Origin: Terebella lapidaria
Lineage: Eukaryota; Annelida; Polychaeta; Terebellida; Terebellidae
Direction of reading: 5' to 3'
Length of the DNA stretch: 64,000 bases
Assembly (NCBI GenBank): GCA_949152475.1
Contig: OX424555.1
Span: forward strand, 17,936,868 to 18,000,867
Under the pieces are notes generated by a model. The model saw only the letters and a list, made by a program, of their open reading frames with translations, ran no database searches and had not been told where the DNA came from. Both the position numbers and the translations under genes were made by a program. Of this stretch, positions 1-63,626 are shown piece after piece. Position 1 is the stretch's first letter; every line of letters starts with the position of its first letter.

Positions 1-1755
1 ATCCCTGTCTATTACATGGTGGCTATCGTCGAATAAATCTCATTAAAGTCAAGTGGTTTGAACGTCGTGTAACAGCTTTCAACATTTCAAGTGCTCGCCG
101 TCTGAGGCCGGAATAAAATGAACTGGGTCGAGCGAATGCTACGTGCGCACAACTTTCTTTACTGGGTCACTGGTGGGGAGATGCCAGTATGGAAACATTG
201 ACATGAATTGCAAGAATACGGTCTAACAATGGAGCACAGACAAAGCTCCTCAAACCATTTCCGCATTGTCGGCGGGACGAGAATAAGAGATAACTCGTCT
301 TCCAATAATGGTGTTGGTCAGTGCACGTTTCAAGCTCTGAGGGAATTGTACTGTCTACAATGCACAAATCATTATACACGATTACGCAATTCATGCAACA
401 GTAATACATCTGAGCGTTAACGAGAACCTGAAAACATGTGAATGCCAATCCGTGTTACATTACTAGAAAGGAAGTATCCATCCTCTGGTGAGTTTTGTGT
501 GTGTTTATTGTGTGTACATGGAAGCGCCTCTTACAGAACAGAACGACTGGATTATATTCTCAACGACCTGTAGAGAAGCAGTTGACCGACATGTTTCGTG
601 ACCTTACAAATACAAAGCAAGCAGTCATGATGTCGGTAAGATCTTCAAAGTGAGAGTGGCGTCTTGGAGTAGGCACTGCTCTGATGATCCGTGCATTGAC
701 GTCTACAGAATAAGAAGCATAGGTACAATTCACTCCAGTTTTTGACGTGTAATTGACATTCATGGGCATGACCTTGTACTGGAGTCCGTCATGTATTCAC
801 TTTGGGACATGATCAAGGTCAGGATTGGAGAAGGACATCACTCACAGAACAGCGCCACCGGCGACTAACCAATAATCCGTTGAAATGATTTCCACCTGAA
901 ACACTATCTATCAACAGTGTCACATCGAGGCAAATCTGACTCATATATGATGAACGTCCTGGGTCCTGAATGGCATACATTTGAAACAATTTCCAAACTA
1001 ATTCAAGGGCATTGAATGTGCATAGCTGCAGGTGCCGTCATGCAGATGTTACCCACAATCAACCCTACCAGTGGAGTCGTCTCAGGATCCGTCTCGTTAA
1101 AGCTGGAAACTCACTACGTTTTTTTGGTCCTTAATATACCCGCTGGTAATAGTAAAGCACTGGGGAAAAAATCATGAACAGCATTGAACAATATTCATGT
1201 GCTTAAAAATCATGAAGAGCGTTTTCTTGTTGGTCGACCATGACCTTATATGGCCAGCGCTAAATGTGAAATCTCAGAATTTCGAGCCTATAATGAATTT
1301 TGTATACATGGAACTGGTATCATGTGTTTCGCCCTGTCCTCTCCAGAGAGCTTCAAAGAGTTTCTACGAAGCCGAGTGTGAGCGAGGTGTCTGATGCCAT
1401 CTGTGTTATCGAGATGTGGAGGGTGTCACGCTTTATCCGTGGCGATGCGATGCTGTACAGACCATAGAATGGCCGGATATATGTCTTTGACGAAGCAGGA
1501 ACTAATTATCCTCGGATCTTCATATCCTCGGGATATGATTAATATGTTTGTGTATATTGTGTCAGGTTTATTGACGGTATCACCACTCTCTTGTAGATAT
1601 TTGTTCTTTAAAAATAATTTTGGAAGCACTTATTTCGTAAGGTATATTACCAGTAATCGATTGGCTCAATGGATGGGCAGACTGAATTAGAATTTTTAAT
1701 ATTCAATAAAACATCTTGGCGTTAGGTTAGAGAGAGAAAATGACATTGTCGCTCA
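1..1755 (+). repeat. Array copy 1, blocks A and B
   Basis: No gene recognised. The first 1030 bases align by eye with 48323-49375 (block A; both begin near CCCTGTCTATTAC and keep landmarks such as CAGTGCAC and GAGAATTGTACTGTCT in order). The next part, to about 1560, aligns with 50920-51182 and partly with 9765-9900 (block B; shared landmarks GAAGCAGGA, CTAATTATC and GCCGGATATA). Short frames in block A are not kept open in the second copy. I read this as the truncated left end of the first unit of the long array; the unit probably continues to the left of the window. Confidence 0.7.
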
Positions 1756-1756
1756 C

Positions 1757-2752
1757 TTGCCTACCCGCTGAGCAGCAGCCTCTAATCAAGAGGCATAGCT
1801 CGGTCAAGTTTTATCAATCAAAGTTCAGGATTCAGTTTTTTTCCTCTTTTTCCTCCTTTATCTGCATGGAAACCATTTAAGTGAACAATTCAAGGCGATA
1901 TCATTTGAGTTTCTGGGACAGTACGTTGGCTTTGAGTTGTAGACAACCACGACTCGTTCACGATGATAATGGAAGTCTGCTCCCATGGTATTTGTACAAC
2001 GATTACAGCCTTCTTCACCTAGAAGGTGTATTCTAGACTTGACGTTTAGATTTCCGCTGCGAATCCGAAACGATATCCCTCCTACTTCTACTCGTACCCT
2101 CTTAAAGTACAAGAAGATGTGCCTCTATAGATGAATGGTCCTTGTAAAACTAATTATCGATACCATTTATCTAGTAAATCAAACATTACAAGACACATTG
2201 GTTTGTTTTGATTATTAACGGGTCATCGAGGTGGGAGAGGTTCTAGCATTCAAAAGAAATCAATTGTTCAATAAGTACAGTACACGTACAAAATGAAATG
2301 CCATAATTCATAGTCAAACATCAAAGCGATTTTCGTTCACATTCAGCCAATATTGATTGAATATTGATTGATTGCGTGTAAAACAAGCTGCAAAATATGT
2401 ACTACGGATGTTTTAAATTGATGTGGGAAATCATAAACCTACAAATAATATTGTTAATGACCAGGCGTTATTGCTGTAAACACAGATGATAATGTATTTC
2501 AACTTGAAAACAAGGTGAATAATATCAATAATAAGAATGGTATTGAAAACAACGCCTTCTGTACAAAGTTTGAATACACATTCGACAACAGGATATACAC
2601 GTACAGGAAAAGCTAAACTTTGTAGACTACAAAATTAACACGATCACCTTCAATTCTTCGTAAATATAAATGACAGTTGTATATGAGTTAATTAGATGTT
2701 AAAGACGCATATTTATTGCTCCGTTTATATCTGGTAGCCGTTTGTAAAAAAA
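1757..2752 (+). repeat. Array copy 1, blocks C and D (first part)
   Basis: Block C opens with CTACCCGCTG and continues through an AATGGGCATAGCT-like landmark and then CCTCTATMGATGAATGG, followed by a stretch ending near TTGTTTTGATTATTAACGG. The same order is seen at about 20115, 24898, 52503 and 57800, so this is one of five copies of the block. Block D (from about 2300) carries TTCACATTCAGCCAATATTGAT, matching about 53070 and 58430. No frame is conserved across the five copies. The block is cut at 2752 by the LTR-like insertion. Confidence 0.65.
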
Positions 2753-2825
2753 TGTTAGTGTAACAAAACCATGCAACTGCCGCGCTGAAACGTTCGTTAG
2801 GAACGGTCACGTGATCTACAAGGTC

Positions 2826-3065
2826 CACTTGCGAAGACACCGTTCGCGGAAGAACCGTTCGCGGAAGCACGATTGCGGAAGCATCATCAGCGGAAGCATC
2901 GTTCGCGGAAGAACCGTTCGCGGAAGCACGATTGCGGAAGCATCATCAGCGGAAGCATCAGTCGCGGAAGCACCGTTCGCGGAAGAGGAGCCTTCGCGGA
3001 AGAACCGTTCGCGGATGCAGTCTTCACCACGTGGAGAAGAGTGCGGAAGATACGTTCGCGGACGA
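2826..3065 (+). repeat. GCGGAAG minisatellite inside the LTR-like element
   Basis: About 15 imperfect units built on GTTCGCGGAAGNAC, mostly 15 bp with 12-18 bp variants. The multiple-of-three spacing creates spurious open frames on the + strand rich in Arg, Ser and Glu. It lies just upstream of the TATA box at 3090, where LTR enhancers often carry tandem repeats. Confidence 0.85.
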
Positions 3066-3089
3066 AGATGCGCGCGCAGCCACCCTGGC

Positions 3090-3097
3090 TATATAAG
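3090..3097 (+). promoter_or_regulatory. TATA box of the LTR-like element
   Basis: TATATAAG sits in a GC-rich setting, about 25 bases after the minisatellite and about 30 bases before a GC-rich leader. Position and context suit the U3/R boundary of an LTR. Activity is inferred. Confidence 0.4.
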
Positions 3098-3582
3098 GGA
3101 GAGCGGACGGCCGCTCTGAGAGCACTGCAACAGCGACATCGACCGTGGGGAGATCGTCACCGCCACAGCCAAGGGACTCGACGAACTCCGTGCGGACGAC
3201 TCCTTCTTCAGGGCCTTAGAGTCAACCGGGATTAGACCGACTACCTGGAGAAACCATTCGACTAAACGGGACGGGAAACTTCAACGGGAAGGGACAGAGA
3301 GACGCCGCCGGCTAAGAACTCTTTTTAGTTGTGCCCTCGTGCACTATTTATTTTTGAAATGTGATCATACAGTGCTCCATGTCTGAACTTCATATTTGTA
3401 CGTCACGTGGGTGACCAGCCATACAACTGTAAGTTGATTTGATGTATATAAATCTTCAATTTATTTACATCTGAGTTGCTTCTTGCCTAAGTGAAGCCGG
3501 TAAGCTACGGAGTGATGATACACCAGCGTTGGGGGACACCAATTTAGTGACGGCTCTCGAATCACAACGAGCGGGAGTTACA

Positions 3583-5000
3583 TAAAGTCTATACGATCAG
3601 AGAAACCAGGTTTTTTGGGCCACACCGAAAACAAGTCATTACCAAACGTCACATTAGTATATCCCCAATGCAACAATATTTGATTATGGCAATAGAAAAA
3701 CCTCAGCCCAAACCAAACAAAATGTATATTCAGTCACACTGGCGATATCATATGTGGACAACGTGTGTAATACAGTGTGTTCTATTGTGTACTTGAACTT
3801 GCAGAATATAACACAGGAAATATGGGTTTGACAAGTACCATTCATAAGCCAAAATGCTACTGAGTCAAATTGATCAAATGCAAAACTCAAATTGACGTGT
3901 ACATATTATTTCGCGGTATCAATCCCATGGAATCATCTTCCACAAACCTAATAGAAGACACCCCATTGAATCAGATTCACCCTTGTCTGTGATGAATGCA
4001 CATTGATAGAAAAACGGCCCTGAACGACACTGCGAACTCGATGTGACCTTGGCAGAGGGAAATGGAAAGATGGGAAAAAATGATGGTGCAAAAAATGGAT
4101 GGTGACCAGTGTGACTTTGAACGTAGAGTCCAACATTCATGTTCAGTGCCGTATGGTCGACATGGCTAGTAAATAGTTACATGATCTAAGGACCTGGGCT
4201 AAGAAAACCGAACATTTATCATATACAGCATTCAAATGACGATAAAAAATTCATCCTGATCCTCACAGTGGGTACTTTGATATGACCGGAAACAGGGTTG
4301 CAACGGAAAACGTACTTGTGACTGGCATTCATCGCAGAAAGGGTGAGAAACAGAATGTAGTGGGTTTTTCTTCTTCAAACCGAGGCTTCCCTAAGGGTTA
4401 GAACTAGTGTATTGATAGCATGCGAGTTTATCAGTTTTCTGATAAAACGAATTCCTCTCGATTTTGTGCCTTGGATATCGTTTGATTTAATGCTGGGTGT
4501 CGCCGGTAAGTCTCGACCGTGAGTAGGCCGCTCTTCAAAGGGCTCCGACTCTTCGAAGATAAATTTGTGTCTTCAAAACAACACATATTATGTCTCGTCT
4601 GTCAGATAGCTGGTATACCTGGAAGACAGATTATATGATGGATCCATTGAAGTATGTCGTTTATATTTATATGTCATTTAAGCCGATTGTTCCCCTTAGG
4701 TCAATTGGTTAATAGCTCAAGGTGCATGTATGCAGTAGATAGGGTTTTGAAGCATGGAACGGTGAAAAGTAAAGTGGTCCAAATCTATATCCAACCAGGA
4801 AGTATTTAGGCATGATATATTTATAGTTTGACTCGTTACCAACTATCTGTTGGCCATCGTTGTAAAATCGATAACACTATTTCACTAGTTCCGTATTAAC
4901 CAACATACCCACTGAAACATGAACAACAGCAATACTGGGAAATCACAAAAGACACTACGCCATCATATTTTATGAACCCAACTAGATAATGTTGACAATT
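3583..5000 (+). repeat. Array copy 1, blocks D to I
   Basis: After the LTR-like insertion the array resumes. Block E (about 3917-4150) matches 11680-11900, 21000-21480, 25870-26340 and 53320-53700. Block F (about 4345-4560; landmarks TTCCTCTCGATTTTGTGCC and ATATCGTTTGATTTAA) matches 12395, 38320, 53740 and 59720. Blocks G, H and I follow, with TGATGGATCCATT, GAAGCATGGAACGGTG and a landmark near 4850. Blocks J to Z, present in copy 5, are missing from copy 1 after about 5000. Confidence 0.7.
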
Positions 5001-5289
5001 ATCATCACAATTAGGCATTCAGAGTACAAGTAAAATGGGCATGTGTTTCAAGTCACAATATAAGCAAGCCATAGGATGAACTAAAGAAACTCATTACTGA
5101 TATTGATAGCTATGTGGAATATGTGATGAACAATCATTACATTAAACACTGGAATAATACAGACCAATCTACCCAGATGAAGAAGATGATATCACGATCA
5201 CATCTCATTCCCATGTTTATTATACTAATTTCATTGAAAACATATTGCAACCGTAACGTTTGAACAAACAGTGATACAGTGATTTTTGT
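5001..5289. other. AT-rich stretch, nothing recognised
   Basis: No gene, inverted repeat or clear counterpart in the other copies was found. It spans the point where copy 1 jumps from block I to the later blocks, so it may contain the deletion junction. Confidence 0.4.
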
Positions 5290-6060
5290 AATTCTGTAGT
5301 TTGGCATGTATTATTAAAAAATATAATGGTCGACCATATACTCAATAAAGTTTTAAATATGAACTTAAATTAAAGAAAAATTTTAAATTAAAGAACGTTG
5401 TAATACAGAGATTCAAATTTATGTGCTCCAGGTATATTTGTTACGTACTTTGGTCGCTAGGGGACACATGACCAAAAGCCTCAATCACATCTTCCGCTTT
5501 CACACTGTCAGGTTCAATGGAACAAATAAGCAAATGACCCGGGAAAAAACATTTAATTTAGATGTGCGAAAACGTGTATCCTTATAACATATAATTTTAT
5601 TTGTCCCATACTGAACCTTTATTATCTTTGTTGACGCATTACCAATCAACAATCAACTAACATTTTAAAATGACACTATTGTTAGAGTGAAATATCTGCT
5701 ATAGCCATGTTGCCTCATCATATCATATCATATGCGTTCATAATGATTACTTTCACTGCAGAAGGTAGGTATATTGTGCCAAACACTCCATGCTGCATGC
5801 AATTTGTCGGTATATATTGCTTTTCTGGATATCATTGCATAAATATAAACAGACATTTACGGCTTCAGTACATAGTCCTTTTTATTGTACGCTGTGTTCT
5901 GCAGACGGCGCTGTCCAATTTTTGGATGATAAAAATTCAGAAAAGGAACTAAAACACAGCTGGGGGATTGGGCAAATCTTTGATCATGTAAAATAATTCC
6001 ACATGCACTACATGAACATGCACAGGTAACCCTACAAAGACCTCTTGTTTTACTACGAGT
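5290..6060 (+). repeat. Array copy 1, block BB (matches the 2.9-kb duplicated region)
   Basis: Aligns by eye with 29870-30530 and its duplicate at 32790-33470. Shared landmarks in order include TGTCAGGTTCARTGGAA, ACATTTAATTT, TGCGYTCATAATG and GACCTCTTGTTTT. Short frames here (for example 5707-5952) are not kept in copy 4, so I call no gene. Confidence 0.6.
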
Positions 6061-6654
6061 GTGAAGCTCTACTCATCAGTGCTATTTGGTATATACAGAT
6101 TTTATACCCATATTTTGCTCAGAATTTTATTCCAATGACAGTTGTTGAGCTTGATATATGGGAATGGAATTGCGTGTACCATCAGTCTGGCCCCCTTTAG
6201 GATTTATATGCATATCAGTTGCACCACGGTAGGAAATATGATTTTCGCAGGTGTCATTGTCAGCCCTGTTGAATTTTGAGGCTACCATCTGTCACGTGTA
6301 TCTGCAATCTGCAATAGAAGCGAGTTATAGCCCAAAACATGACTTTAGAATTGTCGATGGCGGCCATTTTGAAAAAGGCAATTTTGAGGGGGATGCATTG
6401 TTCTGACGACGTTGTTCCCATCAAATTCGGATTCAGCATACCCAGAAACCCCCAGGGACGAATTTTCATACTTTCTGCCAGCATTATCCGCTCCACTAAT
6501 TTCCAAGATTTATTATTTAAGGTCAGGCTCTAATTTCTATTTCATGGTTCTACTATTATTTTCGAATCCTGATGTTTATTTCCATGTTTTAATATTTCAC
6601 ACTGGGTTTTATATATTATTTCCGGAGTTTGAATGCGAGTAAATTCTTCTATTA
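6061..6654. other. Possible dispersed-repeat insertion in copy 1
   Basis: Between blocks BB and DD, copy 1 has sequence I cannot align to copies 4 or 5. It includes GATGGCGGCCATTTTGAAAA and a GAGGGGGATGC stretch, of a style seen in dispersed invertebrate repeats. Terminal repeats and a target duplication were not found. Frames at 6260-6642 overlap on both strands and resemble nothing. Confidence 0.3.
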
Positions 6655-7190
6655 AACAGGAGTAGTAGGCCCCATGTATAAGCGGCAGAAGTTAATGCTA
6701 TTAGTCAAGTTTTTTGAGGGAGCACTTTAATGCTTAAGGTTTCCTTGGGGCATAGTCATCTTGCGTGTGTAATTCAGTGGGAATGTTTTTTTTACTGGGT
6801 CTCACTCGTATAATTTTAAGCAGTTGTATTTTTCATGAATGAAATGAACTGGATGAAATGAAACTGTCAGGTCGAGGTATTCCAGTTCTACTTGACAGAA
6901 AAAACACACCTCTCTGAGGATGTAACTATCTGTAATGTGACATGTTTTAGAAGACTACTCCAAGGCAATGGATGAACAAAAACTGAAATTATATATGAGG
7001 TTGGTAGACAAAGAAATACTTACCGTTATTGTTTCAAATGAGCGAGATATCAAAGCAAGTACATCTGCATATATGTGTTGATGATAACACAATCCGCTAA
7101 TGTGTGAAATGTAACAACATTTTCTTAAATATATTTGTATGTCATAATTGATTTTACGAGGAGAATGGCCGGGCACATCAACGTACTAAC
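6655..7190 (+). repeat. Array copy 1, blocks DD to FF
   Basis: Landmarks GTAGTAGGCC, GCTTAAGGTTTCCTTGGGGC, TTTTTCATGAATGAA and CATTCCAG-like sequence recur in the same order at 35720-36000 and 44810-45050. No frame is shared by the three copies. Confidence 0.65.
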
Positions 7191-8099
7191 ATATCAGAGA
7201 CATCACATAGTTTGCTTATTGCTCATATTTCCTGCAGTGCGTATTTTTTTTGTCTAACTAAAAAATATTCATTGCTGATAATAGGTATATAAATATATAC
7301 TTTTTATAATCGCAATTACAGTGGAAAATTAACAACCAGCACAGCACACTGTGCGAATGTAATATATACATATACGTCACCTTTAGGACCTTATGATGTA
7401 ATTATCCACGGTGTAATTTTGAAACGGACACTTTGATAAACACCGTACAAGTTTGGGATCTCAGAGTGTACATGTATATCAGAGTTTCCTCATAGAGAGA
7501 ACCCGGTGTAGCTTTCCCATTATCATAACAAAACATGTAAATAATTCATTGTGATGAAATAGAATAATTAAATGCAGTTCATAGTTATCCAGTAACACAG
7601 TGTATGGTATTGTCTCAATTACAATATTGCCTCAATCATAGATAATGTATCCATATCTGATCGGAGGGGACATTCTGTACACAACCATACTCACATTCGG
7701 GGACATTCTGTACACACCCATACTCGAACTTCTGTCCCCTGTGTGTTGAAGAATTGTAAAAGAGTGTGTATTTGTTATACCAGGATTTATTCCTAGGTTC
7801 GCCATTGACAACTAGATCTACATTTAAAAATGACAAAGTATTAAAATATATGTACTGTACAAGTGTTCGAACTGGTATAGTTTTTGCTTGAGTGCATTGT
7901 CATGTTTAGTGCTGACTACACACAGGACACCATACCCCATGATAGTATTAGGTTGATTTACCTTATGGAAGTATTGCATTACATATCGAGTGCCATGACC
8001 GAGATAGATATAATGTTGTGAAGAACAATGCCACAGGCGGCAATGGTTAATGTTCTCAGGCTGAGGGCTTCTATTTCCGTGGCTGTCCGGCTGCACTAA
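7191..8099. other. Unassigned copy 1 sequence with a 33-bp tandem duplication
   Basis: No gene and no clear match to other copies. At 7666-7731 a 33-bp unit beginning GGGGACATTCTGTACACA occurs twice in tandem; its length, a multiple of three, gives the duplicated peptide EYGCVQNVP in the antisense frame and nothing more. Confidence 0.45.
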
Positions 8100-8235
8100 A
8101 CAGAATCCGATAATGATAACATTTCACCTACTTCTCATAAAGATCCCCATCATTCACATGTTGATGGTAAGATCTCTTATATCCTGACACCCTACCATTG
8201 TATTTTGCTTATAAGAAATGCACTTTTTTTCTTAA

Positions 8236-8643
8236 AGTGATATTGGGAGAAAAGCTATTTGTTCCAAAAATCTGTGGTCTCAGAAAAATAGGTTACAAAA
8301 CAAACTATGCTTGACCAGATGGATAAATCAAGCATGTGACAGTAATAGCAGCCGCTTTTTTGTTTTGTTTTGTTTTGTTTTGTGATTGTGACCTGACCTA
8401 GTATACGCTCGATTGGCTCGAACATATACGAGTAAGCTGGAATCGCATTGCATCAAGGGATACACAGCACCGAGAATGGCGGTAATGTCAACAAACTCCA
8501 GACTAATTATCTCCAGCGAAACTCGCAGCGAAATCAATGGGAAATGTTTTGGCAAACAAGTGCAGATATATCATTATTGCCTGTGTTTCCTTCGTTCCTT
8601 CGGTAATGTATGGCAAAATCCATAACTTTCTCCCAGTATCACT
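8236..8643. mobile_element. MITE with TTAA target duplication
   Basis: Inverted terminal repeats of about 18 bp, AGTGATAYTGGGAGAAA, lie directly inside TTAA at 8232-8235 and 8644-8647. Copy 4 holds the matching uninterrupted site: a single TTAA at 37821-37824 in the context TTTCTTAA, so the insertion is directly visible. TTAA targets are typical of the piggyBac and Kolobok superfamilies. The ends do not read as canonical piggyBac, so I leave the family open. There is no transposase, so the element is non-autonomous. Frames inside (8328-8625) lie within the element and are not genes. Confidence 0.85.
8356..8382 (+). repeat. (TTTTG)n microsatellite
   Basis: Five or so uninterrupted TTTTG units inside the TTAA MITE. 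Confidence 0.9.
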
Positions 8644-8753
8644 TTAAACATTGGAATATAAACTATGGTAAATGCAGGCTTGAAATGTTTTGTATGTGTG
8701 TGTTGTCGTTAACATAATGAATTATTATTCATTATGTTCAAACTGTGTTTCAG

Positions 8754-8812
8754 GTTGTTGAATGCTCCATGACACACTTGATCCTGTCCGGCGCGCCACG
8801 ACAGTTATAGTG
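8754..8812 (+). other. Exon-like segment with splice-site consensus (unproven)
   Basis: A 59-base segment is bounded by TGTGTTTCAG upstream and GTAAGT downstream. The paralogous segment 37928-37984 in copy 4 is likewise bounded by TGTGTTACAG and GTAAGT. The reading frames contain stops in at least one copy, so any exon would be non-coding. Flanking sequence is conserved to a similar extent, so selection on the splice sites is not shown. Confidence 0.2.
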
Positions 8813-9160
8813 GTAAGTTATTTTGTTGCTAAATGAAATAATAGCAAGATCAATCACCACAGAAAGGGTACAAGTGAAAGAAAACATGATTATACACTGT
8901 CACATGATTATACACTGTCACATCTGCTCTCAGAAGAACATAAGAGCCTGTTACACTGGTCACTGCAACCTCAACTTGCAATTATACTTTATAGTAAGAT
9001 TGCATTTTGTATTAGTAGTAAAATGGTCAACTTGTGATCGGTGTCTCGATCATATGATTCCAATACAAGTCAATATGGTCCGTGACTAGTCACAGTATTT
9101 ATCGTGAGGTCGTCGGAGATGTGGCGCAAGATGTCTTCTGGTTTTACGACCAGTAGATCA

Positions 9161-9764
9161 ACCAATCTTCCAACTGAAGTACCTTGACCATGCTCGTTTT
9201 GTGGATAAGCATTTGATCAACTCACGCATAATCACAAGATAATGAAGACGTATGATACTGATGTCTTCTAAACGCTGGTACACCGGTACTATCTTTGTGA
9301 GCCATACGCATTCACCAACACTACACATTTCGTGTATGCGTCAATATTCCTCACATTGTTCGTACCAGTGTGCTAGTGTTTAAGACATCGTACTTACCAA
9401 TCCTGTGTATATTGTCCCGAAGAGCTAGCTTGTTGTTTAGGAAATAGATATAACCAGGCTTCCAAGATATGTTTGGTATATAGCGGCAATTTGGTAGTAT
9501 TTTAGTTATGTATATGTCGTGTCTTGGTCGTATCGTCTATATATATGTGACAGGACTTTCGTTTCACCGAGAGGTGATATAATAAGATGTCACAACAGAT
9601 GTATTTGTACACTGTGACCTTCTGCGTGAACATGCCCGTTTTGTAAGTAAGCTGTGTTCAAGTTTGGTAGCAGACAATTCAATTAACTGTCAAGGCAAAT
9701 TATGTTGTGGAACAGAAAATCGTGAACGGCAACGGATCTCTATTGTCTTCTGTAATGTCGCGAC
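9161..9764. other. Unassigned stretch with an imperfect inverted repeat
   Basis: No gene recognised. From about 9256 to 9394 two arms of about 45 bases are imperfectly complementary: the left arm contains GATGTCTTCTAAACGCTGG and the right arm the inverse of GATGTCTTAAACACTAGC. It may be a small foldback element; no target duplication was identified. Confidence 0.5.
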
Positions 9765-10424
9765 GTGGAACGTCACACGTTATTAAAGGCGATGTTGTAC
9801 ATAACATATAGTGGCTCCGCCGGATACAGGTCTTCAATGAATCAGGAACTAATTATTATCGGGTCATATCGTCGTCATTTGACAACACGGGTGATATATA
9901 ATTTTGTACGAGTATGTGTGTGTGTTCTGCCAATATCATGCACGGTACCATAATTCTTTTGTACATGTTGTTCTGTTGGGGATGTTACCAGTGAGCGATT
10001 GGCATAAGTGTTGGATAGTCCGAACTCCATTATTTGAGGTTACCGAAACATATTGGTGTCCAGTTAGAGAGGAAAATTTGACTCGTTGTCAACAACAGAA
10101 CAAAATGATTTGATTAATTCCTCTATTTTGATGAACATAATAGATGGCGTGATGAGACAAACATAATTAAACAAGTAAACAACCTACGCGAAATGATTTT
10201 CTGCGGCAGTACGTTAGTTGTGCGTTGTAGAAAGCCATAAATCATACATGATGACAATATAACCCTGTCCCGAGGGTATAGATTAACATCCATCAGCAGT
10301 GACACCGGCTCAGTGTATGAATGTGAGTATTGACCTATTACCGCCATCACATAACGGGTATTGCGCAGGATTTTTAGCTTCCACAGATATTGTTACGTTT
10401 CAGCTCGAAAATAAGGCTTAAAAA
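9765..10424 (+). repeat. Array copy 2, blocks B and C
   Basis: Block B landmarks (GAATCAGGAACTAATTAT, GCCGGATA, GTGAGCGATTGGC) match 1490-1680. Block C/D sequence at 10180-10400 (AGTACGTTAGTTGTG, CACCGGCTCAGT, TATTGACCT, CACATAAC) matches both about 1910-1990 and 58830-58950. The start of block C seen in other copies is missing. Confidence 0.65.
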
Positions 10425-13660: not shown

Positions 13661-13771
13661 CATGATGGTTTTGGATGTATTATGTTTATATCATAACATC
13701 CATTTCACACATAAACTTTGCTTCAGTATTTGCATGAACTTCCTAACTTTTCGCATGTATTATATATCAAA

Positions 13772-18145: not shown

Positions 18146-18169
18146 TGGACCTATGGTCCGATAACCTAT

Positions 18170-19160: not shown

Positions 19161-19166
19161 TGATAT

Positions 19167-40024: not shown

Positions 40025-40031
40025 AACACAT

Positions 40032-40366: not shown

Positions 40367-40373
40367 AACACAT

Positions 40374-52116: not shown

Positions 52117-55100
52117 ATGTTGCTTGACTCGTTTTGAATAGCACACACTGAAATGAGTGAAAGAGGTATACTGTTTGGAAGATGTAGTGTAACTGAACAA
52201 GCCATTCTAATAAAACTTCTGCGAAACAAGCATTGAATCGGTTGGCACTTGGTATTCATTAACCCTCTATCAGGTGTGTTGGTCTTTACTACAACTCTAT
52301 ATCCCATATTTCAATACACTGTGAGGTTCATTGGATGGACAGGTTACCATTTATTATATATTATCACGTATATAATCAATAATGGCTTAGTTTCCCAGAA
52401 CCGATGGAAAAATCAATGTCCACAGTTCCCTGAAGTCGACTGAATGTTTGATAAGCCAGCAATTTTAGGTCCAGTTTGTAAAGACAATGCCTCCCTAGCT
52501 CCTTGCTACCTGCTGATCATCACAGACACCGCTCCAGTGGCAGCCGCTAATCAATGGGCATGGCTAGGTCAAGTTTTTTTCAATCAATGCCCATGAATCA
52601 GCTTTTTCTGCTCTGCTTTTGTGCATAGAAGCCCTCTAAGTAAACAACTTACCATAAGATCATTTGATTTTCTATACGTTGATGGTGAGACACCCATGCC
52701 TCGTTCGTGATGACAATGGAACCATGCCTGCGGTATCATTGGTTTGCAGTTTAGGTTTCCTCTGCGAATTCTAGCCGACCTCCTCCCTACCTTTCCCACT
52801 ACACTCCTAAGGAACAACATGTTTATTGCTCTAGAGAAAATCCTCACAATGAGAACAAAAGATTTCCCTCTATCGATGAATGGTTCCTGTAAACTGATCA
52901 GTGATATCATTTATCTAGCAGATCTAGCTTGGTTTGTTCTTGTTATTAACAGCTCGTGAAGATGGATGACAAAACATTTCACATACGAGAGAAAACGATC
53001 GATTGTTCAATAAGTAAAGTACACCTTACAAAATGAAATGACATAATTCGACAATAGAGCGAACACTTGTTCACATTTAGCCAATATGGATCGATCTCCA
53101 TCGACGTCGAAGCAAACATGTACATCCAAGCATACACTTGTGTCATCAGGTGCAGACAGTGTTCGTGATATAGTTGTTTCCATTGGGTACTTGATTAGTT
53201 TAGTACACGCCTACCATCTTGCAGAACGAATCATATGAAATAAGTGCATGACGAATACAAGTACCAGTACCCATTCACAAGCAAAAATGTTAAAAACCAA
53301 ATTCACGTGTATGCTTTTCCCACATAATCAGTCCCAGGGAATCATATCTTTCAAACCTTAAATAGAAGTTATCCCATTCCATCAGATTCACCGTTTTCTG
53401 CGATGAGTGCACATTGAACTGGCCCGATCGATACTGGCTCTGAACGACAAATGTAGGATCCAACATTCCCACTCAATGTTTTATGGCTGATCGCATACTC
53501 TGGCTTTCTTGTCAATGAAGGGAGTGAATTCTAAGGATTCACCACAGGGACACTTCCTGAAATGAACGTAAAGCATCCAATTTAAATAGTCACGAGAACT
53601 GAGTACCCGGAAACTAATGAGCTGCCGGTGTTGGAAGCCTTAACAATGTTCAGCATTCAAAAATGCGATATAAAATTTATTCTCATCGTCACAGCGGGTC
53701 CCTAGATCAACGGAAAATGTTTTTGTGACCCTGGGATTCATTGCAGAAAATGTGAGAAATAGAATGTGTGTTTTTTTTCTATTCTTCTTCAGAGAGTGAT
53801 TACCCTAAGGGGTGGAGTCACTGTACTGATAGTGTATGAGTGTATCAGGTTTCTGATAAATGAAATCCTCTCTATCTTGTGCCTTGGATATCGTTTGATT
53901 TGATGCTGGGTGTCGTCGCGAAGTCTCCATGGAATTGGACAGCTCTTCAAAGTGTTCAGACTCTCAGAGCTTTCGAAGATACATCTGTGTCATCAAAACG
54001 ACACATTTTTATGTTTTGCAACTTAAGCCTTGTACCTGACATATTTGTTCCTGATGAATATGAAGGCCGTGATTTTGTAATGCAAAATATATTAACCATA
54101 TTGTCAGGATTAGTTGGTCCTTTCCTTGGGTGATGCTTTCTTTGCGCACAGTATTCATGTGTTTACCTGTATTCAGTTCAAAAAATCGTTCTAGCTCAAT
54201 CCGCTACCAGCTGAAGACACGTCTACCCGATAGACAGGGCTTTGAAGCATGGAACGATGTAAAGTAAAGCCATTTCCCGCCAATTAATGTCACAATGCGC
54301 ATGGCATAAATATCATGTTAGCACTGTTGATTTATTGTGTGTTCATCTCCCCACTGCATGTCGGTTAACTACCGCAATTCAATCTCATATTTGATGCTGT
54401 GAGTGCACCGGGCTCAATATAGTTATATGCTAAATCGGTACTTAACAACATCATTCGAACTATTGGCGACATAAATCTCAAAATAAATATCACTATGCCA
54501 TGCGTTTGGTAGTAACCCACTTAACCAATTAATGGTGAACGATAAGAGAAACAAATAACAACAAAATCCTAGAAGAAACTGTCCATATATTGTATGAACC
54601 CCACTACCCAACTTATCTTAGCCAATACCATTGGATCTATCTTATCAGCATGTTAATAAATCTTGATTCCGAAAGCATGGGAACCGTATATTAAATGTAT
54701 TGTTGCTGAATTGTGACATGAACATACAGTATGTGGCCCATACATGCGTCTGAACGCATTCGTACATAAAAGGCTGTGATGAAAGTTTCAGATTCTCATT
54801 TTGTAGTTATCTTTTTGAAAGCATCGTCAAATATGATGACACCATTATTATCATAAAATACGAGCATCAGCCTAAACAATCAAAAACAGCAGGTGGGATA
54901 TCGAAAAGAAGAATGGAATGTCTGGTTTATGACATATCCCAAGGCACTTTTTGGTAAGCTCTTTTCAGGCAATGATTGCCTTGTAGCTTGCACAAAAATG
55001 CTTGGAATTAGGGAACTTTTGTTTACATTTAGTTATTATCGCCTACAATCCAGTTAATTGCAATCTTAAGTCTCTGTGATATGAACTAGGCATCATTTAT

Positions 55101-56179
55101 GACATAGGCAAAGAATAGTCCGTACATATATTTTCCGTCTTCCAATTCCCCCCCCCCCCCGCCTACCACAGATACCACAGATACTTACTTGATATTGATT
55201 AATCACACAACAGTAGCGTTTGGGCCTAATATCTTGACTAGAGTGATATTCTGTGGCCTCGTTAATACTGCGATACGTCACCAACATTCTAAGTTGTCGA
55301 TTGTGCTTTTTTCTGGGTATTGATGCCCCCCGTTGTTGGTATTTGGCCCCAGCCTTTTCGACAACAGACGCTGGAGCAGTAAGAGGCGAGTAATGGGTGA
55401 TTCTGTTTAGCTGCGAGTCCAGACGTAGAGTCAGGAACCTCTCGTGGAGCTCCCGCTTGCTGCCATGGACATTATTTGGCTGGTCATCCAAGGGGCAGTA
55501 CATGTACCAACTGGTAATTAATGGTCATTCGACGAGTTCATGCTTTGTGGGTAACATGTCAGTGCAAATATGCAGAGAGAGTCTGGTAAGCATCAAAGGA
55601 ACATCGCATCAGGGTAAACCGATTGAAGTGGTTTCCCGACAACAGCTGTGATAGGTAGTATCCAAACATTTCTATGCCAGATTTCATAGAATCGAACTTT
55701 ATTCATCGGCATTGATTTGTTATTCACATTGTGCTGTAGCAGCACTATTGTGAAGTCATTCTTGAATTTCAACATGTAATGACACATCCATTCAGGATTC
55801 CAATAATTTTTAGTCTGTTGTTTTCGTCTTGTGTAAATCATGCTATGAAGACCCAGTACTGATCACGATAAAGACCTCAGTGGGGATATATGGATACATT
55901 ATATATGTGTATATTAAACTAATGTATTGAATACATATCCTGACAAGGTCGTTGTGTATATAATATTGAATATGATACCATCGTGATTGCGTGATTATTA
56001 CAAGTGATTTGATTTCCAGTCAGACGATACCCATACGTTTAACAAAACGCCCCCGTGGGAGTGCCGAGCGATTTGGTTGAGAAAGACATGCCTTTAGTTA
56101 GCAGGAGCGTGGATCAGATTTGAAGTCACGTGGGTGGGGATTGTGACTCAACCACTGCTATCCTTCTTTGGTACCAAGC
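52117..56179 (+). repeat. Array copy 6, blocks W2 to Q
   Basis: W2 (52180-52445), C (52503), E (53320-53700), F (53740-53985), H (54230-54300), I (54450), J (54880-54960), L (55040-55120), N (55390-55610), O (55810-55890), P (55990-56110) and Q (56120-56180). A C-run lies at 55149-55160. Frames at 55093-55651 overlap L-N on both strands and are not conserved in copies 2, 5 and 7. Confidence 0.75.
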
Positions 56180-56640
56180 GACATCATCAAAATCTGATTG
56201 TATTGGTGGTAATAGATTGATACTTACATTCATACCACTGAGTCGGTGTCACTGCTGGCGGACGTTAAATCTGTCCCCGAGGATACCGTCAACTCACTAG
56301 CCTTCTGGCTTGTGATTGGGTACTTTTGTACTTGTCATGTATCTATTCCATTGGGTTTGTTTCGAATTTCTAAATCATTTTCATAGGTTGTTGGGCAGTT
56401 GTATACTAATTCCATCAGGTGTACAGTAGAAACAACTACACTTAACACACTGTCTGCCCCTGATGACGCCAGTGTGTCTTTGGATAAACTATTTGGTCGG
56501 GCTTTGTTTCTATTGCAAAATGTTGGTTCTTTACGTTTCTTATTGACATCATCAAAATCTGATTGTATTGGTGGTAATAGATCGATACTTACTCTCATCA
56601 GAAACCCATAACTCTCTTATGGGTTTCTGCTTTCATGGTT
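56180..56640 (-). repeat. Inverted copy of block D inserted between blocks Q and R
   Basis: Read on the - strand, 56240-56600 matches 58590-58790 (and less well 53130-53290): GTCATCAGGG, GACAGTG, GGAATTAGTATACAACTG, CAACRACCTA, GACAAGTAC and CCAATCACA in order. A direct repeat of about 53 bases (CATCAAAATCTGATTGTATT and onward) borders it at 56181-56234 and 56546-56600. Other copies go straight from Q to R. The 87-codon antisense frame here has no intact counterpart in the other D blocks. Confidence 0.7.
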
Positions 56641-57304
56641 TAGCAACATGGAATGATTCTATTAGGGTGATGTAGGTGACATTTCGCAGAGACCACACCA
56701 GATAACTTTCAAGTATTTTAATTTTAAGATGACAAAGGTATTAAAACAGAGAATAAGTTGCAGTCTACAAGAAATATGTTCATTCTCTCACTGCGTGCTT
56801 GCATCCAGCAGACTTGAATCACCACGCCCTTGGCTTTCTCGACCAGGGTTCTTATTCCTGCAACCCCGCATGTTTCGTCTTTCTAAAAAAAGGGAAAATA
56901 CTGAAAGGCATTTTTCATAGGGTTAACTACGCGGCAGTATTATGTTTAAAGGGTAAGCTTAATGTTTACAAGCTTCTGTTATACACTACATTGGAAATTA
57001 GTGTTACACTCCAGTATGATGGAAGTAAGGGCAATATATAATAAGTAAGGCAAAATTAAGAAAAACAAATTAAGAAAAATAAACAAAGCAACCACATTGG
57101 AACCTTGCTGAATTGGGAAGAAGTTTGAATCCTCTCATAGTCATGGTCGCCATGTTGTATTTGAGACAGTCAGGTAGGTTTGAGAGATTTGTAACCTGGC
57201 TGAATGAATTCCGTATGGTCGAAAACCTGGGCCTAGACACATTAATAAAGTCTCTGGGTTGCATTTCCACCATAAACATTATAATACCCGCCATTTCTAG
57301 TTTC
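56641..57304 (+). repeat. Array copy 6, block R and unassigned tail
   Basis: Block R (GGAATGATTCTATTAGGGTGA, ACATTTCGCAGAG) spans 56645-56720 and matches 15260, 22310 and 40985. From about 56735 I find no counterpart. Frames at 56729-57433 overlap on both strands and continue into the next element's TIR, so I do not call genes. Confidence 0.55.
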
Positions 57305-57310
57305 ACTATA

Positions 57311-57755: not shown

Positions 57756-57779
57756 ACTATAGGACATATAGGGAAAGCC

Positions 57780-58990
57780 AGTAGACTGTAAAGCTTGGCT
57801 ACCCGCTGATCATCACGGACCCTGCTGGAGCTAACCAATGGATATAGCTAGGCTATGTTTTATCAATCTGTGTCCAAGATTCATTTTTGCCTTCCTCTCT
57901 TTACCCCTTAATGAAGCAACGTACGGATAAAAATTTGTAATTTTCTGCGTTTGTACGTTGGTTGTGATTTGTGGACAGCCATGACTCATACACGATGACA
58001 ATGACACCCTCCCCAGAGGATATCAGTAGAGGGATTACGGCCTTTTCCTCCATCACAACACTTCCTGTGAATTCTTGGCTTGATGCCTGGGTTTCCGCTG
58101 CGAATTCCACCTGATCCCCTTCCTATCCCCCCCCCCTACAATCCTATAGAAAAAAATGCTTTATTGCTTTAAAGAATTTCCAAGTCCGCACAACGAGAAC
58201 GAAAGAAGTTCCTCTATCGATGAATGGGTCTTGTAAAATTAATCAGTGATATCATTTATCAAGCAGATCAAACAGTACAAGACACCCTGATTTGTTTTTG
58301 TTATTAACGGCTCTTGGAAATGATGTAGTTTTTAACCTACTCGAGAGAGCGATCGTTGGTTCAATAAGTGAAGTACACCGTACAAAACCAAATGGCATAT
58401 TTGAACAATAAAGCGATTATAGTTCACATTCGGTGAATATTGATATATTCACGTCCGTGAAGAAAGGTGTGAAATATGTACTATGATTGGTTGGAAGAAA
58501 TACGTTTGAAATCATAAACCAATAAGTATCGATTTATTGACAAACCTAGAAGCACAACATGTCCGTGATAAAATTAAAGCCGAACCAAATATTCACAGCC
58601 AAAGCCACATCGGTGTCATCAGGGAAAGACAGTGGTGAAAGATAGGTGGATCTACTCTACAGTGTCCACTAGTTGGAATTAGTATACAACTGTCCAACGA
58701 CCTACCAGTAAAATTTAGAAATCCGAAACAGACCAAGGCAATAAGTGTATGGCAAGTACATAAGTACCTAATCACATTCCAAAAGGCTACTGAGATTGAG
58801 GTATCACCGGGGACATACATATTCCTCTAGCAGTGAAACCGGCTCAGTTGTATAAACGTAGGTATTGACCTCTATCACCAGCACATAACTGGTGATGAAC
58901 AAGCGTTTTTCTTCTTGCTTACACAGATGTGTTTCAGCGAAAAATATATTACAATTAGAATGCTTATGAAAACACGGTCACAATCAGTCA
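57780..58990 (+). repeat. Array copy 7, blocks C and D
   Basis: Block C at 57800 (CTACCCGCTGATCATCACGG), CCTCTATCGATGAATGG at 58212, ACAGTACAAGACACC at 58271, block D from 58430 to 58800, then CACCGGCTCAGTT-like sequence shared with copy 2 at 10300. Block E is missing. Confidence 0.7.
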
Positions 58991-59715
58991 ATTAGTCAAT
59001 TTACAGGTTGAGTACATTCTATCAACGTATTTGCAGACCCTTTTTTCGTTTTGCTACTGACCTAAAATAAAAATAGACAAACAGGAATCGCTTATAAGGG
59101 GCATACCAAGGTTCAATTATTTGCATGCATTTTTAACAAAGTTGTGACGTTTTATATTATGACAGATTTATGTTTATGACGTCACTGTGACGTCACTCTA
59201 CGTCATAAAGCCAAACATTAGATATTTGTAAATCTGGATCTCAGTGACTTCGTTATGGTATATTACTCGACAGGTTTCAAAAGATTTGAAAATTTGACCT
59301 TGATATCATGACATCTTGACCTCAATTATCTCAGCAACTTGAGATCGAATGGAAATTTGAAATACATGAGTGATTGAAATTCATTTTCTGCATGTTATGG
59401 TCCAGCCGCATCTCTCTACCTCGCTTTCTACCTCGAGTTAATAAAGATAATATGTTTTACAGGTTCTCAGTGACTTGACTTTGATAGGTCATCCTATTGA
59501 GTTCATGGCCAGTAGTATGCATATCAGGTTTGAAGCGATTTCATGCAGTTTTGACAAAGTTATGGCATTTTGAAACATAAGAAATTTGATGTGTATGACG
59601 TCATTGTGACGTCACAATAAGTCGTAGCGCCGAAAATAAGGTATGAGATCGAGGAATCCGCCCGTCCATGTCCTAAATGCACTTCCGTTGAAATCAGATC
59701 AGTGTAGAATAGCTG
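58991..59715 (+). repeat. Dispersed repeat doublet with paired CRE-like sites
   Basis: Two related units of about 400 bp (about 59080-59280 and 59480-59680) share GCATGC/GTATGCATATCAGG, TTTTRACAAAGTTRTG and a pair of TGACGTCA octamers. The octamers are at 59177 and 59188 in unit 1 and at 59596 and 59607 in unit 2. The doublet separates D from F in copy 7 and is not seen in other copies, so it is an insertion. Ends not resolved. Confidence 0.6.
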
Positions 59716-61782
59716 TACGTTTTTTTTCTTCTTCAAACATAGACTCCCCTAACGGGATGGGCCTTACGTAACGATAGCATATTGTTTATCATGTTTCTGA
59801 TAAGATGATTCCCTCTAGATTTTGTGCCTCGGATATGGTTTGATTTAAGACTGGATGTCGTCCCGGGATCTCGACCGTGAGTTGGACCACTCTCCAAAGG
59901 TTCCGACTATCAGAGCTTTCGAGGATAATATGTCTGTGTCATCGAAACAACACAGCTTAAGTATTGTCTGTCAGATAGCTTGTTTACCTGGGAGGCAGAT
60001 TAAATGATGGATCCATTATCTCGTTCATATATGTAATTCATATACATATTTCTTGACTTACTGGTCCTGGTAACTATAAAGGTAATAGCATTGCATCGTA
60101 GAATATATTACCATATTGTTATTGAAAGTTGTTCAATTAGGCGATGTTTTCATTTCTCGTAGTATTCATATTTTTGCCTGTATATGTTTGGTTACCCAAT
60201 CAAACGCAGCTCAATTGGTTACCAGCTCATGTACGCCGTGCACAGGGCGTTGAAGCACAGCACGGTGCAAAGTGAATTGATGGTCATTTCCCACCAATTA
60301 GTGGCACAATGCGCACTACATTAAATATCATACTAACACCGCTGTTTCTTTGAGGGGTGCATCGTCCGGCAGCATGCCAGTCCATTACCGTAATTCAGAC
60401 TTACATTTAGCGCTGGAAGTTCATTAGGCTCCACATAGTACATGTTAAACTGGTTCTTTAAAACGACGTCATTCAACAACCAACTGTTGGCGACATCATT
60501 CCCAAATCAATATCACTATGCCTCGAGTTCCGTATTAACCCACAAACTCACTCAAACATGAATAGAAACTGTGCTACATAATGTCGATGTATTGTATGAT
60601 CCCAACTAGCCAATTCGATCTACTTATCAGAGTGTTCATAAAAATCATTTTCCAAAAGCAAAGGAACAGTTTTTTTTTCAGTTGTATTCGGTAAGCATTA
60701 TGGCTTTGTGTTGTCTAACCTGACGTACTGACGCACAATGGAAAAGGCTGGGATAAATAGTTCAGATTGCCCTGTTGAAAGCATTGCCATAATATAGATG
60801 GTGGAACCATTATCCAGGTATCAGGAACACTGTCAAAAAAGTAAAAACTATAGGTGGAGATATCCAAAACGAAAGTGGAGTTCCTGGTCCATGACACATC
60901 CCAAGAAAGGTTTTTATTAAGGTATGTTCATACAATCATTCCTACGAAGTCTCTGCCAAGGTTTGGCCTGTAGCTTGCTAGTGAAATATTTTGCAGATAT
61001 TTGTTTGCACTTGAAAAGAGTTTTTGCTGCCTGCCAACTGGTTTATTGCAATCTTTAGTCACTATAATTATAAGATTTAGGCTTCATTTATGACATACGT
61101 GAAGAGTAATCAGTAATTAGATTCGTTCTCCATTCATTCTCCAAGACGATAATTCCTTATCTTAATTAGGCACAGAGTAGTAGCGTTATGGGCCAAACAT
61201 CTTAACTTTGGTGATGTTTTATGGGCTCGTTAATTCCGCGATTACTTCGCGACATTTTAATAGCGTATCGCCGATGTGGCTGGAAGTGATCGACTGTGCT
61301 TTTATCTGTTTATCGCGGAATGATGCCGCAGTGGTTGGCATTCGGCCCAAACTTCTCGTCAATGACCGTTTTAGCAGTAGGAGGAGATTTGATGCGTTTG
61401 CTGTGTGTGAGTGATGGGTGATTTGTTTAGCTGCGAGTCCCGTTATAGAGTCACGAAGCTGTCATGGAGCCCCGCTTGCTTTCATGTAGATTACGCGGCC
61501 GGTCACCCCAGTGGCAGTGCGTTTAACCACTGGTGATCAATGCTCTTAGGGCGTGTGGTGGAGCGCCATAACTCACGCTCGCTTATGGCACTCACTTGCC
61601 GGGTTCATGCATGTGTGGATATCATGTCAATGCAAATATGCACAGAGAATGCGATGAGCATCAAATCAACATCGCCTGCTTACAGGGTTTTTCGGACTAC
61701 AGCTGTCACAGGCAATATTCATACATGTAAATATATAGTTTTAAAATTCATAACTGCAGAGTTATACAAACATTTCTGTGCC
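59716..61782 (+). repeat. Array copy 7, blocks F to N
   Basis: F (59720-59935), G (59940-60060), H (60240-60330), I (60480-60560), J (60830-60910), L (61040-61120), N (61400-61675). Order and landmarks as in copies 2, 5 and 6. The frame at 61540-61809 covers block N and is not kept in copy 5. Confidence 0.75.
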
Positions 61783-62429
61783 AGACTAAACTTTATTCAC
61801 TGGCATTGATTTGTTGGGCCCTTGTACCGCATTCTACTTAAGGAGTAACCTAAAACTGATGTGCCAGAGTGTATGGGACTAAACTTTATTCACTGGCATT
61901 GATTTGTTGGGCCCATGTACCGCATTATACTCTAGTGGTACTACTCACCCACGGAATGAATGCCTTAACAATTCGTCTGTCACATTTTTAATCTTCGTGA
62001 AATTTAGAACAAGGAGTAACCTGCAACTGATGTGTTTTTGGAATGCATTTAAACAAATTCACCGTGTCTCGTATCTCGTCATGTAATACACCCATTGCAC
62101 TATTGGAAATTCGGTATTATCGCCTTATTGTTTTCCCCTCTGACATGGTCTTGACATTGCTCAAGTTGCGCATGGTCCTGACGACTCAAATATGGTCTTT
62201 AGCTCCTTATACTACTCATCTAACGAGACTCTTAATTGAATTTGTGTTCTCGCATTTAAAAATGTGGACGCCGACCCAGACGCCGGCGGACGCAATGCCA
62301 TGCCAATAGGTGCAGCTCACACATTTATTCAGTACTGTTTTTTGTGGTGTGTGAAGTACTTTGATGACTTTCGACGAGCACGTACTGATCACGATATAGT
62401 AATCAACAGATTGCTGTTGAATGGTCATT
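61783..62429. repeat. Local duplications and end fragment of a GTC-start element
   Basis: ACTAAACTTTATTCACTGGC and the next 34 bases occur at 61783-61836 and again at 61877-61930. AAGGAGTAACCT with AACTGATGTG occurs at about 61840 and 62012. At 62255-62310 a fragment reading GACGCAATGCCATGCCAATAGG matches the start of the GTC-start family on the - strand. The array's blocks O-T are missing here. Confidence 0.6.
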
Positions 62430-63626
62430 AGGCCACTACAAGGGAGAATTGTTCGTCTCACCCCCCCCCCCCCCCACCGCACCCCGGTAATCTTTCTTAG
62501 ACTGGCACTCTGAGGAAAGGCAATCCAGACATCTCAGTCAGTATTGTGTTGTTATAACTTTCGTTTCACAAAACTCTCAAGACCAAAGTGAGATGACTGG
62601 GATTATCGGGGATCGCATCCTGCAAGTGATAGTGAACAGACACAAGTATTCAGAGGTCACCTCTTGTTCGCACCAGTAAGTGCCTTTTCCGGGCTGATGT
62701 TGCGTCCCCTTACGTGGATAAACATGTTCTATTGCATTATGCACATTGCTTATTGCTCTTATCCCCCCACCTTCCCCCTCACACACACACGATTTCGTCC
62801 TCATACAACTTGATAGTTCTCTGTTTTATTCATGAACCTACTTGCTGTCTGCGTTGTCGTCAAAACGCCGATTTGTTGGTGGGATTTCTGCATAGAAAGT
62901 TCATGCACATACAGTTGGCGAATGAAGTTTCGTCTTGTATTGAGTGTTATGTGGCAGCGAATACATTGGACGGAATACATACAATGAATTATCATTTGAA
63001 AAATAGGACACATGAATTGCGGTTTCCTACATTGAAGAATGAGATTGTCCATTTCGTTAATTTGTAGGAACGGTTGCAATAGTTAAACATAACACTATTA
63101 AAGTCTGGTCGAGCGTCTACATCCATTTAAAAACTTGTACATTCTAGTACCACTGAGTCGGTCTCCAATGATTACTGGTTGGAGTTCACTGATGCACAAA
63201 CATCAGCCTGTAGACATTGTGGTTCACATCCGCAATGCAATGACGCTCACAGAATTCGACAGATGCTTCCGATTCAGGAAATGGTGTGTCTCCAGACATG
63301 TCAGTGGGTCACAGAATTCCATTGACATAGTTATTAAACGAGACCTATAAAGTCTGATTCGCTGAAACAGCGGTTCCCTAGCATCATGTGCTTCAGTTTC
63401 GCCCATGCATGAGTTCACTCAATTGAAACTTCATCCTAGCACACCAATCGTAGAGGTGCTCTATTCGGAAAAGACTGTATACAGTTACCTCTTCGATCGA
63501 CAACAGTCTTTTAATATCCAGTGTGCTGGAATGCATGATTGAAATTAAACCAGTGGCTTGAATATATGAATATTGTGTCTGATCGAAAAGGTGATTTATT
63601 TGTAAAATTTCCTACCACTTAGAACA
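62430..63626 (+). repeat. Array copy 7, blocks U to X
   Basis: A C15 run (62461-62475) replaces the CCCCCC of copy 3 at 22764. Then U (62490-62560), V (62815-62840, TTCTCTGTTTTATTCATGAA), W (63070-63475, frame broken before MSVGY) and X (63490-63615). The frames at 62714-63079 overlap on both strands and are not conserved. Confidence 0.7.

What the first reader, a model, noticed from the sequence alone, without database searches (positions are those of the whole stretch)
1..63626. Ancient head-to-tail array of a complex non-coding unit up to about 15 kb long
More than 25 distinct blocks recur in the same order and orientation in at least seven partial copies. Spacing ranges from about 4 kb (T at 22540 to T at 26735) to about 15 kb (F at 38320 to F at 53740). 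No copy holds a long open frame. Such length, order and divergence is unlike a classical satellite or a dispersed transposon, and could be a macrosatellite, a duplicated non-coding RNA locus or the decayed remains of a gene cluster.
Basis: partly seen in the sequence, partly recalled or inferred. Interest (0 to 1): 0.75.

Follow-up and report, generated by a model that had tools for sequence, protein, structure and literature searches.

The report
Old single-locus noncoding tandem duplication array
A stretch of about 15 thousand bases with no recognisable protein gene has been copied head to tail many times at one place on one chromosome of an unnamed eukaryote, probably over a very long time; it looks mostly like ordinary local duplication and decay, with weak hints that parts of it are conserved for a reason.

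Summary
The window is C1:17,936,868-18,000,867 of a 761.6-Mb genome and holds the right half of a same-strand, ordered array of about 130 kb. A complete unit is window 38.8-54.0 kb; after 15.2 kb the order returns to its start. Shorter copies of 4-7 kb lack most of unit positions 3.7-13.6 kb. Local identities run from 63% to 98.5%.

Genome searches with five unit pieces found the unit only at this locus; matches elsewhere fall in short inserted dispersed repeats, except one 47-base match. No Pfam domain in the parts scanned, no Rfam match at gathering score, no tRNA, and no codon-type substitution pattern.

Best explanation: non-protein-coding DNA multiplied by repeated local tandem duplication, then decaying by birth and death without homogenisation. 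Against pure decay, mismatch density is shared between independent copy lineages in five of five blocks tested (combined p about 0.001) but not in a dispersed-repeat control: mild constraint, or uneven mutation. Transcription, related species and how common such arrays are in this genome could not be tested. A new member of a known kind, of modest interest.

The parts
1..4774 (+). right end of a full-length copy that begins left of the window (about -9.5 kb); collinear with about 48.0-54.3 kb
   Evidence: chain -9525..4774 with 38825..54269, 18 blocks, mean identity 70%; local matches
9739..11990 (+). remnant copy, unit positions about 12.3-14.9 kb
   Evidence: 9772-9862 -> u 12285-12379, 11777-11981 -> u 14701-14899; matches to 1390-1991 and to 20.8-21.5 kb
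12370..17155 (+). copy holding unit positions about -0.4 to 3.5 kb (blocks A and B)
   Evidence: chain 12432-16926 with 38366-42253, mean identity 75%
17411..18119 (+). block shared with 24004-24733 at 84%, between two copies
19992..23980 (+). short derivative copy lacking most of unit positions 3.7-13.6 kb
   Evidence: chain 19992-23905 with 24775-28117, mean identity 83.5%
24775..28190 (+). next short derivative copy
27769..33600 (+). most recent duplication in the window: 27769-30666 and 30664-33600 abut, 98.5% identical over 2937 columns, 3-base overlap (GTT) at the junction
   Evidence: junction sequences read
38322..54020 (+). reference complete unit, about 15.2 kb (u 0 = 38800)
   Evidence: closure u 15230-15293 with u near 0
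54030..56787 (+). truncated copy, unit positions 0 to about 2.2 kb and beyond
   Evidence: matches to 38828-41031
57831..64000 (+). copy with unit positions about 13.8 kb to 15.2/0 to 3.7 kb; continues past the window to about +73 kb
39360..40031 (+). block A (u 560-1231), found at 10 places in the array after merging one split copy
42049..42254 (+). block B core (u about 3250-3455); other window copies at 16739-16927, 23504-23709, 27715-27917, 30655-30811, 63168-63363
   Evidence: profile search of the 264-kb neighbourhood finds 10 copies, all on +
52739..53091 (+). block D (u 13.9-14.3 kb); other window copies near 2030-2330, 20417-20644, 25106-25419, 58075-58444
45787..45895 (-). best candidate for a relic coding exon (35-aa frame ending in TGA); coding not supported
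36130..37150 (.). inserted dispersed repeat, not part of the unit
   Evidence: 40 of 8935 candidates scored, hits on many contigs
28666..29182 (.). inserted dispersed repeat box with 21-bp tandem repeats; second copy at 31561-32097
43505..43711 (.). inserted short dispersed repeat
46139..46271 (.). inserted short dispersed repeat
52000..52103 (.). inserted short dispersed repeat

Best explanation
A non-protein-coding segment of about 15 kb was duplicated head to tail at one chromosomal place. Further tandem duplications of whole and part units, some starting and ending inside a unit, together with deletions and transposon insertions, have built and eroded the array ever since. The newest step is joined at a 3-base microhomology, as expected when a broken end or stalled fork rejoins a sister chromatid at a non-homologous site. 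Copies then diverge singly (birth and death) and are not homogenised. Shown: order, strand, single locus, range of ages, newest junction. Inferred: the rejoining mechanism, the great age (about 0.25-0.4 substitutions per site between old copies, roughly tens of millions of years at an assumed invertebrate-like neutral rate), and the lack of a function that drives it.
For: Ordered same-strand diagonals, none in shuffles. Unit confined to C1:17.880-18.010 Mb: 21 of 21 and 15 of 15 matches; 25 of 53, 13 of 45 and 16 of 45. The remaining matches in 19-21 (28, 32 and 29) lie in short query stretches typical of dispersed repeats, except one 47-base match. Graded identities 98.5, 96.9, 90, 85, 83.5, 78, 70% between chains and trees with young adjacent pairs and old deep splits. 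Junction with 3-base overlap. No Pfam match in 24 of 24 translated frames, no Rfam match at gathering score, no tRNA, no codon periodicity: 0.8% of 2384 windows at p<0.01 against 1.0% in permuted data. The neighbourhood has other tandem duplications: a distinct array at -82 to -60 kb and several at 93-157 kb.
Against: Pure neutral decay predicts no shared mismatch pattern between independent lineages, yet r is positive in 5 of 5 blocks tested (0.10-0.25; combined p 0.00095). In one search windows at p<0.001 are 0.17% observed against 0.08% permuted. Alifold z below -3 in 13 of 202 tests. Only one young junction was read at base level.
Confidence: 0.68

Rival explanations
1. A duplicated noncoding locus that still works: each unit holds a long or structured RNA gene, or regulatory/insulator elements, and copies are kept because of conserved islands (blocks A, B, D, F).
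For: Shared mismatch profile between tree-disjoint pairs in blocks A, B, D, E, F with simulations reaching the observed value in 11, 16, 8, 13 and 1 of 170; dispersed-repeat control shows none (r 0.028, reached by 30 of 80). Block B hairpins: alifold z down to -5.7; paired cells 91.7% against 89.2% shuffled (1 of 500 reach it), covariation score reached by 13 of 500. Block B also has a splice-acceptor-like pyrimidine tract plus CAG in most copies (by eye).
Against: No single block but F is strong by itself. Control repeats are less diverged (median identity 88%), so have less power. Covariation is thin: 4 of 28 pairs with two-sided changes, reached by 42 of 500 shuffles, covariation energy term +0.41, in windows picked as best of many. 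The block A hairpin fails in single copies: + strand z of 0.22, 0.84, -0.21, 1.96, -2.52, -1.72, -0.02, 1.08. No Rfam match at gathering score. CTCF-like motif not enriched: 17 matches, 7 of 100 shuffles reach that.
Confidence: 0.2
2. The decayed remains of a protein-coding gene cluster: units were genes with small exons that became pseudogenes.
For: Reverse-strand frame at 45787-45895 found at four array places by protein search, E 1.7e-17 (self), 1.2e-6, 1.6e-6 and 0.0067; local three-base pattern 21:9:5 in one comparison of that block.
Against: No excess of codon periodicity over 2384 windows, while simulated exons at omega 0.1 and 0.3 reach p<0.01 in 93% and 34%. Local-permutation coding score above 4 in 0 of 810, 1 of 615 and 2 of 3258 windows. 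In the best candidate, 6 of 6 changed codons between the window copy and the -14.6 kb copy are nonsynonymous by my reading, and one copy has a 2-base deletion. No Pfam match. Power is low for omega 0.6 (3%).
Confidence: 0.09
3. Assembly artefact (false duplication or haplotype stacking).
For: The 98.5% pair at 27.8-33.6 kb and the 97% pair left of the window could in principle be allelic or collapsed sequence.
Against: Most copies differ by 15-35%, carry their own inserted repeats and indels, too diverged for alleles; C1 is a 100.8-Mb contig.
Confidence: 0.03

Closest known systems
Macrosatellites, in particular mouse Dxz4 and the lemur DXZ4 array
   Same: Units over 2 kb, head to tail, one chromosomal place, not obviously protein coding; mouse Dxz4 has about seven units of 3.8-5.7 kb with more than 5% divergence (PMC3491370, passages seen); the lemur array is imperfect (PMC3218863, passages seen).
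   Different: Here the full unit is 15 kb, old copies are only about 65-75% alike, AT-rich, and many copies have internal deletions; primate DXZ4 monomers differ by less than 1% and are GC-rich. No CTCF-type motif excess.
Tandem arrays made by unequal nonhomologous recombination, e.g. CUP1 in yeast
   Same: Duplication between non-homologous end points, proposed for CUP1 (PMC4232551, abstract and introduction seen); the newest junction here has a 3-base overlap.
   Different: CUP1 repeats carry a gene under selection; no gene found here.
Classical satellite DNA
   Same: Tandem, noncoding.
   Different: Unit length, irregular spacing, lack of homogenisation, single locus with about ten copies.

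Membership tests
Macrosatellite | repeat unit over 2 kb, head to tail | tested here: met
Macrosatellite | confined to one or two chromosomal places | tested here: met
   first-look candidates fully scored (10 of 10), capped at 40 in the others
Macrosatellite | large homogeneous array (as in primate DXZ4; mouse Dxz4 departs from this) | tested here: not met
   identities mostly 65-85%, unit lengths 4-15 kb
Macrosatellite | copy number polymorphic between individuals | not testable with these tools
   one assembly only
Tandem segmental duplication cluster (birth and death) | copies of graded age, ordered, with internal duplications and deletions at one locus | tested here: met
Tandem segmental duplication cluster (birth and death) | non-homologous, microhomology end points of founding events | tested here: inconclusive
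   one young junction read, 3-base overlap; older junctions not resolved
Dispersed transposable element | unit copies at many loci with target duplications | tested here: not met
Protein gene or pseudogene cluster | recognisable domains or codon-type substitution pattern | tested here: not met
   Pfam not run on window 1-38799 and 53702-64000
Noncoding RNA gene cluster | known family or covarying structure shared by copies | tested here: inconclusive
Noncoding RNA gene cluster | transcripts | not testable with these tools
   no RNA data

The most novel reading that the evidence does not exclude
The array is a working noncoding module multiplied about ten times: islands within each 15-kb unit (blocks A, B, D, F) are under mild purifying selection in several copies, as RNA exons with short hairpins or as regulatory/boundary elements, while the DNA between them decays. 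It would be a very old, unhomogenised, single-locus noncoding gene family.
Probability: 0.2. Interest if true: 0.6.

Novelty: new member of a known kind. Interest (0 to 1): 0.33.

Why it matters
If only duplication and decay, it is a clear record of how a chromosome region keeps duplicating noncoding DNA for a very long time without homogenising it, and a useful counter-example to reading every ordered array as functional. If the shared islands are under selection, it would be a noncoding gene family with many diverged members at one locus, for which paralogue comparison alone could map functional elements.

Tried and rejected
Coding: pairwise best-frame translations showed in-frame stops shared between copies. 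A first coding score with global column permutation was discarded because its null was biased (mean z 3.57 over 366 windows); local permutation replaced it. The best candidate frame was searched as protein in the genome and found only array copies.

RNA: Rfam at E<=0.5 gave 16 matches, none reaching its gathering score; 15 of 16 lie in short tandem repeats at 28.8-32.1 and 57.4-57.7 kb and one at 51255-51327. A block A hairpin was rejected after folding single copies.

Rate heterogeneity: pairwise window spread exceeds binomial in the ten homologous comparisons made, but also in young pairs, so it may reflect misalignment or conversion and was not used. The tree-disjoint test was first run with simple permutation and no gap filter: A 0.161, B 0.163, D 0.362 well above, E 0.057 and F 0.057 not, G with only one pair of pairs and dropped. 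With a gap filter and neutral simulation F rose to 0.251 and D fell to 0.171. The first 40 simulations per block reached the observed value in 1, 4, 5, 8 and 1 cases (A, B, D, E, F).

Organism: a mollusc haemocyanin family search found nothing, and its control rang nowhere, so it says nothing. CTCF-like motif scan not significant. Paper searches listed no description of this locus; the species being unknown, that is weak.
Full report
Place and extent. I took 100 kb on either side and compared the 264-kb stretch with itself. Same-strand ordered matches fill about -57 kb to +73 kb in window coordinates, that is C1:17.880-18.010 Mb (right edge). The window is the right half.

Unit. With u = position minus 38800, the stretch 38.8-54.0 kb is a complete unit: the other copies map to it in order and u 15,230 coincides with u 0. 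A second full-length copy runs from -9.5 to 4.7 kb (18 blocks, 70% mean identity). Most others are shortened: those at 12.4-18, 20-24, 24.8-28 and 57.8-64 kb hold u 13.7-15.2 and u 0-3.7 but little of u 3.7-13.6. Ten anchor blocks occur at 11, 10, 7, 8, 6, 5, 8, 4, 5 and 6 places. A sequence profile of block B finds 10 copies in the 264 kb, all on the + strand.

One locus. Pieces 22419-23905 and 13925-15100 give 21 of 21 and 15 of 15 matches at this locus on the + strand, all first-look candidates scored. Pieces 45230-49230, 52000-54100 and 41900-45230 give 25 of 53, 13 of 45 and 16 of 45 matches here by my count of the lists; the 28, 32 and 29 others fall in query stretches 910-1042, 1-114 (31 of 32; the other is 47 bases at 1135-1181) and 1593-1829, each hitting many contigs, that is inserted dispersed repeats (only 40 candidates scored). 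Unit stretch 49.2-52.0 kb was not searched.

Ages and mechanism. Chains range from 98.5% (27769-30666 with 30664-33600) through 96.9, 90, 85, 83.5 and 78 to about 70%. Trees of six blocks show young pairs and deep old splits, that is birth and death without homogenisation. The youngest duplication abuts with a 3-base overlap GTT; the sequences left of its start and right of its end look unrelated by eye over some 30 bases, which fits microhomology-mediated tandem duplication better than crossing-over between repeats. CUP1 arrays in yeast are a described precedent for nonhomologous origin (PMC4232551, abstract and introduction). Dating is inference: about 0.25-0.4 substitutions per site between old copies, tens of millions of years at an assumed rate near 3e-9 per site and year.

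Not protein coding as far as tested. Six frames of the full unit, of -60 to -50 kb and of -80 to -60 kb gave 0 Pfam families at E<=0.1 in 24 of 24 frames; window 1-38799 and 53702-64000 were not scanned. Mismatches show no three-base rhythm: 3.8, 0.8 and 0.17% of 2384 windows at p<0.05, 0.01 and 0.001 against 4.2, 1.0 and 0.08% permuted; simulated exons give p<0.01 in 93, 34, 3 and 1% at omega 0.1, 0.3, 0.6 and 1. Local-permutation coding scores exceed 4 in 0 of 810, 1 of 615 and 2 of 3258 windows. The best candidate (45787-45895, minus) recurs only in the array and its differences from the -14.6 kb copy are nonsynonymous (by eye).

RNA. No Rfam match at gathering score, no tRNA, both for the window only. 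Consensus folding of 101 multi-copy windows on both strands gives z below -3 in 13 of 202 (mean -0.58; windows overlap). Block B has three short hairpins, 91.7% of cells paired, 4 of 28 pairs with two-sided changes (42 of 500 shuffles reach that), covariation score reached by 13 of 500, covariation energy term +0.41. I count this as weak.

Hint of constraint. If copies decay neutrally, mismatch density along the block in one pair of copies should not predict that in a pair whose tree path is disjoint. Mean correlations are 0.147 (A), 0.156 (B), 0.171 (D), 0.102 (E) and 0.251 (F); neutral simulations with indels, realigned and with trees rebuilt, reach these in 11, 16, 8, 13 and 1 of 170; Fisher's combined p is 0.00095. 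Ten dispersed copies plus the window copy of the repeat at 36.1-37.2 kb show 0.028, reached by 30 of 80 simulations, but at 88% median identity, so with less power. Block G was dropped (one pair of pairs), and before the gap filter E and F were not above chance. Uneven mutation and alignment effects remain possible.

Surroundings. A second, mostly unrelated tandem array with periods of several kb lies at -82 to -60 kb; it shares one 173-base block with the main array (77%) and shows no codon rhythm (1.2% of 86 windows at p<0.01). Further tandem duplications lie at 93-120, 125-132 and 150-157 kb. CpG observed/expected in the array (0.71-0.93) is like the flanks (0.65-1.07). The whole neighbourhood looks duplication-prone, which favours a plain mutational account.

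Known relatives. Macrosatellites share size, order and single location; mouse Dxz4, with about seven units of 3.8-5.7 kb and more than 5% divergence, is the nearest described case seen (PMC3491370, passages; PMC3218863, passages). Homogeneity is not met here, so I describe it as macrosatellite-like and file it as a tandem segmental duplication cluster. The organism, transcription and relatives remain unknown; five paper searches listed nothing on this locus.

Noticed in passing
window -82000 to -60000 (L010-L012): A second ordered noncoding tandem array with its own unit, next to the main one; it shares one 173-base block with the main array.
   Followed up: partly
window +93 to +120 kb and +125 to +157 kb (about L021-L028): Several younger tandem duplications of about 1-4 kb at 88-94% and a 23-kb-spaced third copy.
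   Followed up: no
L022-L024, C1:18.0465-18.0511 Mb (window about +109.6 to +114.2 kb): Tandem repeat open in several frames on both strands for hundreds of residues, about 91-94% between copies; long open frames here are a composition effect of the repeat.
   Followed up: no
window 18605-19161, 34693-35568, 19696-19895: 134-bp tandem repeat family with AAGGTCA-like words, at three places in the window.
   Followed up: no
C1:17.8406-17.8515 Mb (L009, L010) and C1:18.0948-18.0988 Mb (L028): Long frames that look like retroelement proteins flank the region; described only, from the frames printed.
   Followed up: no
window 57356-57708: 21-bp tandem repeat (CTAAGTCATACGTATGAGATA), palindromic in part, giving spurious microRNA-family matches.
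   Followed up: no
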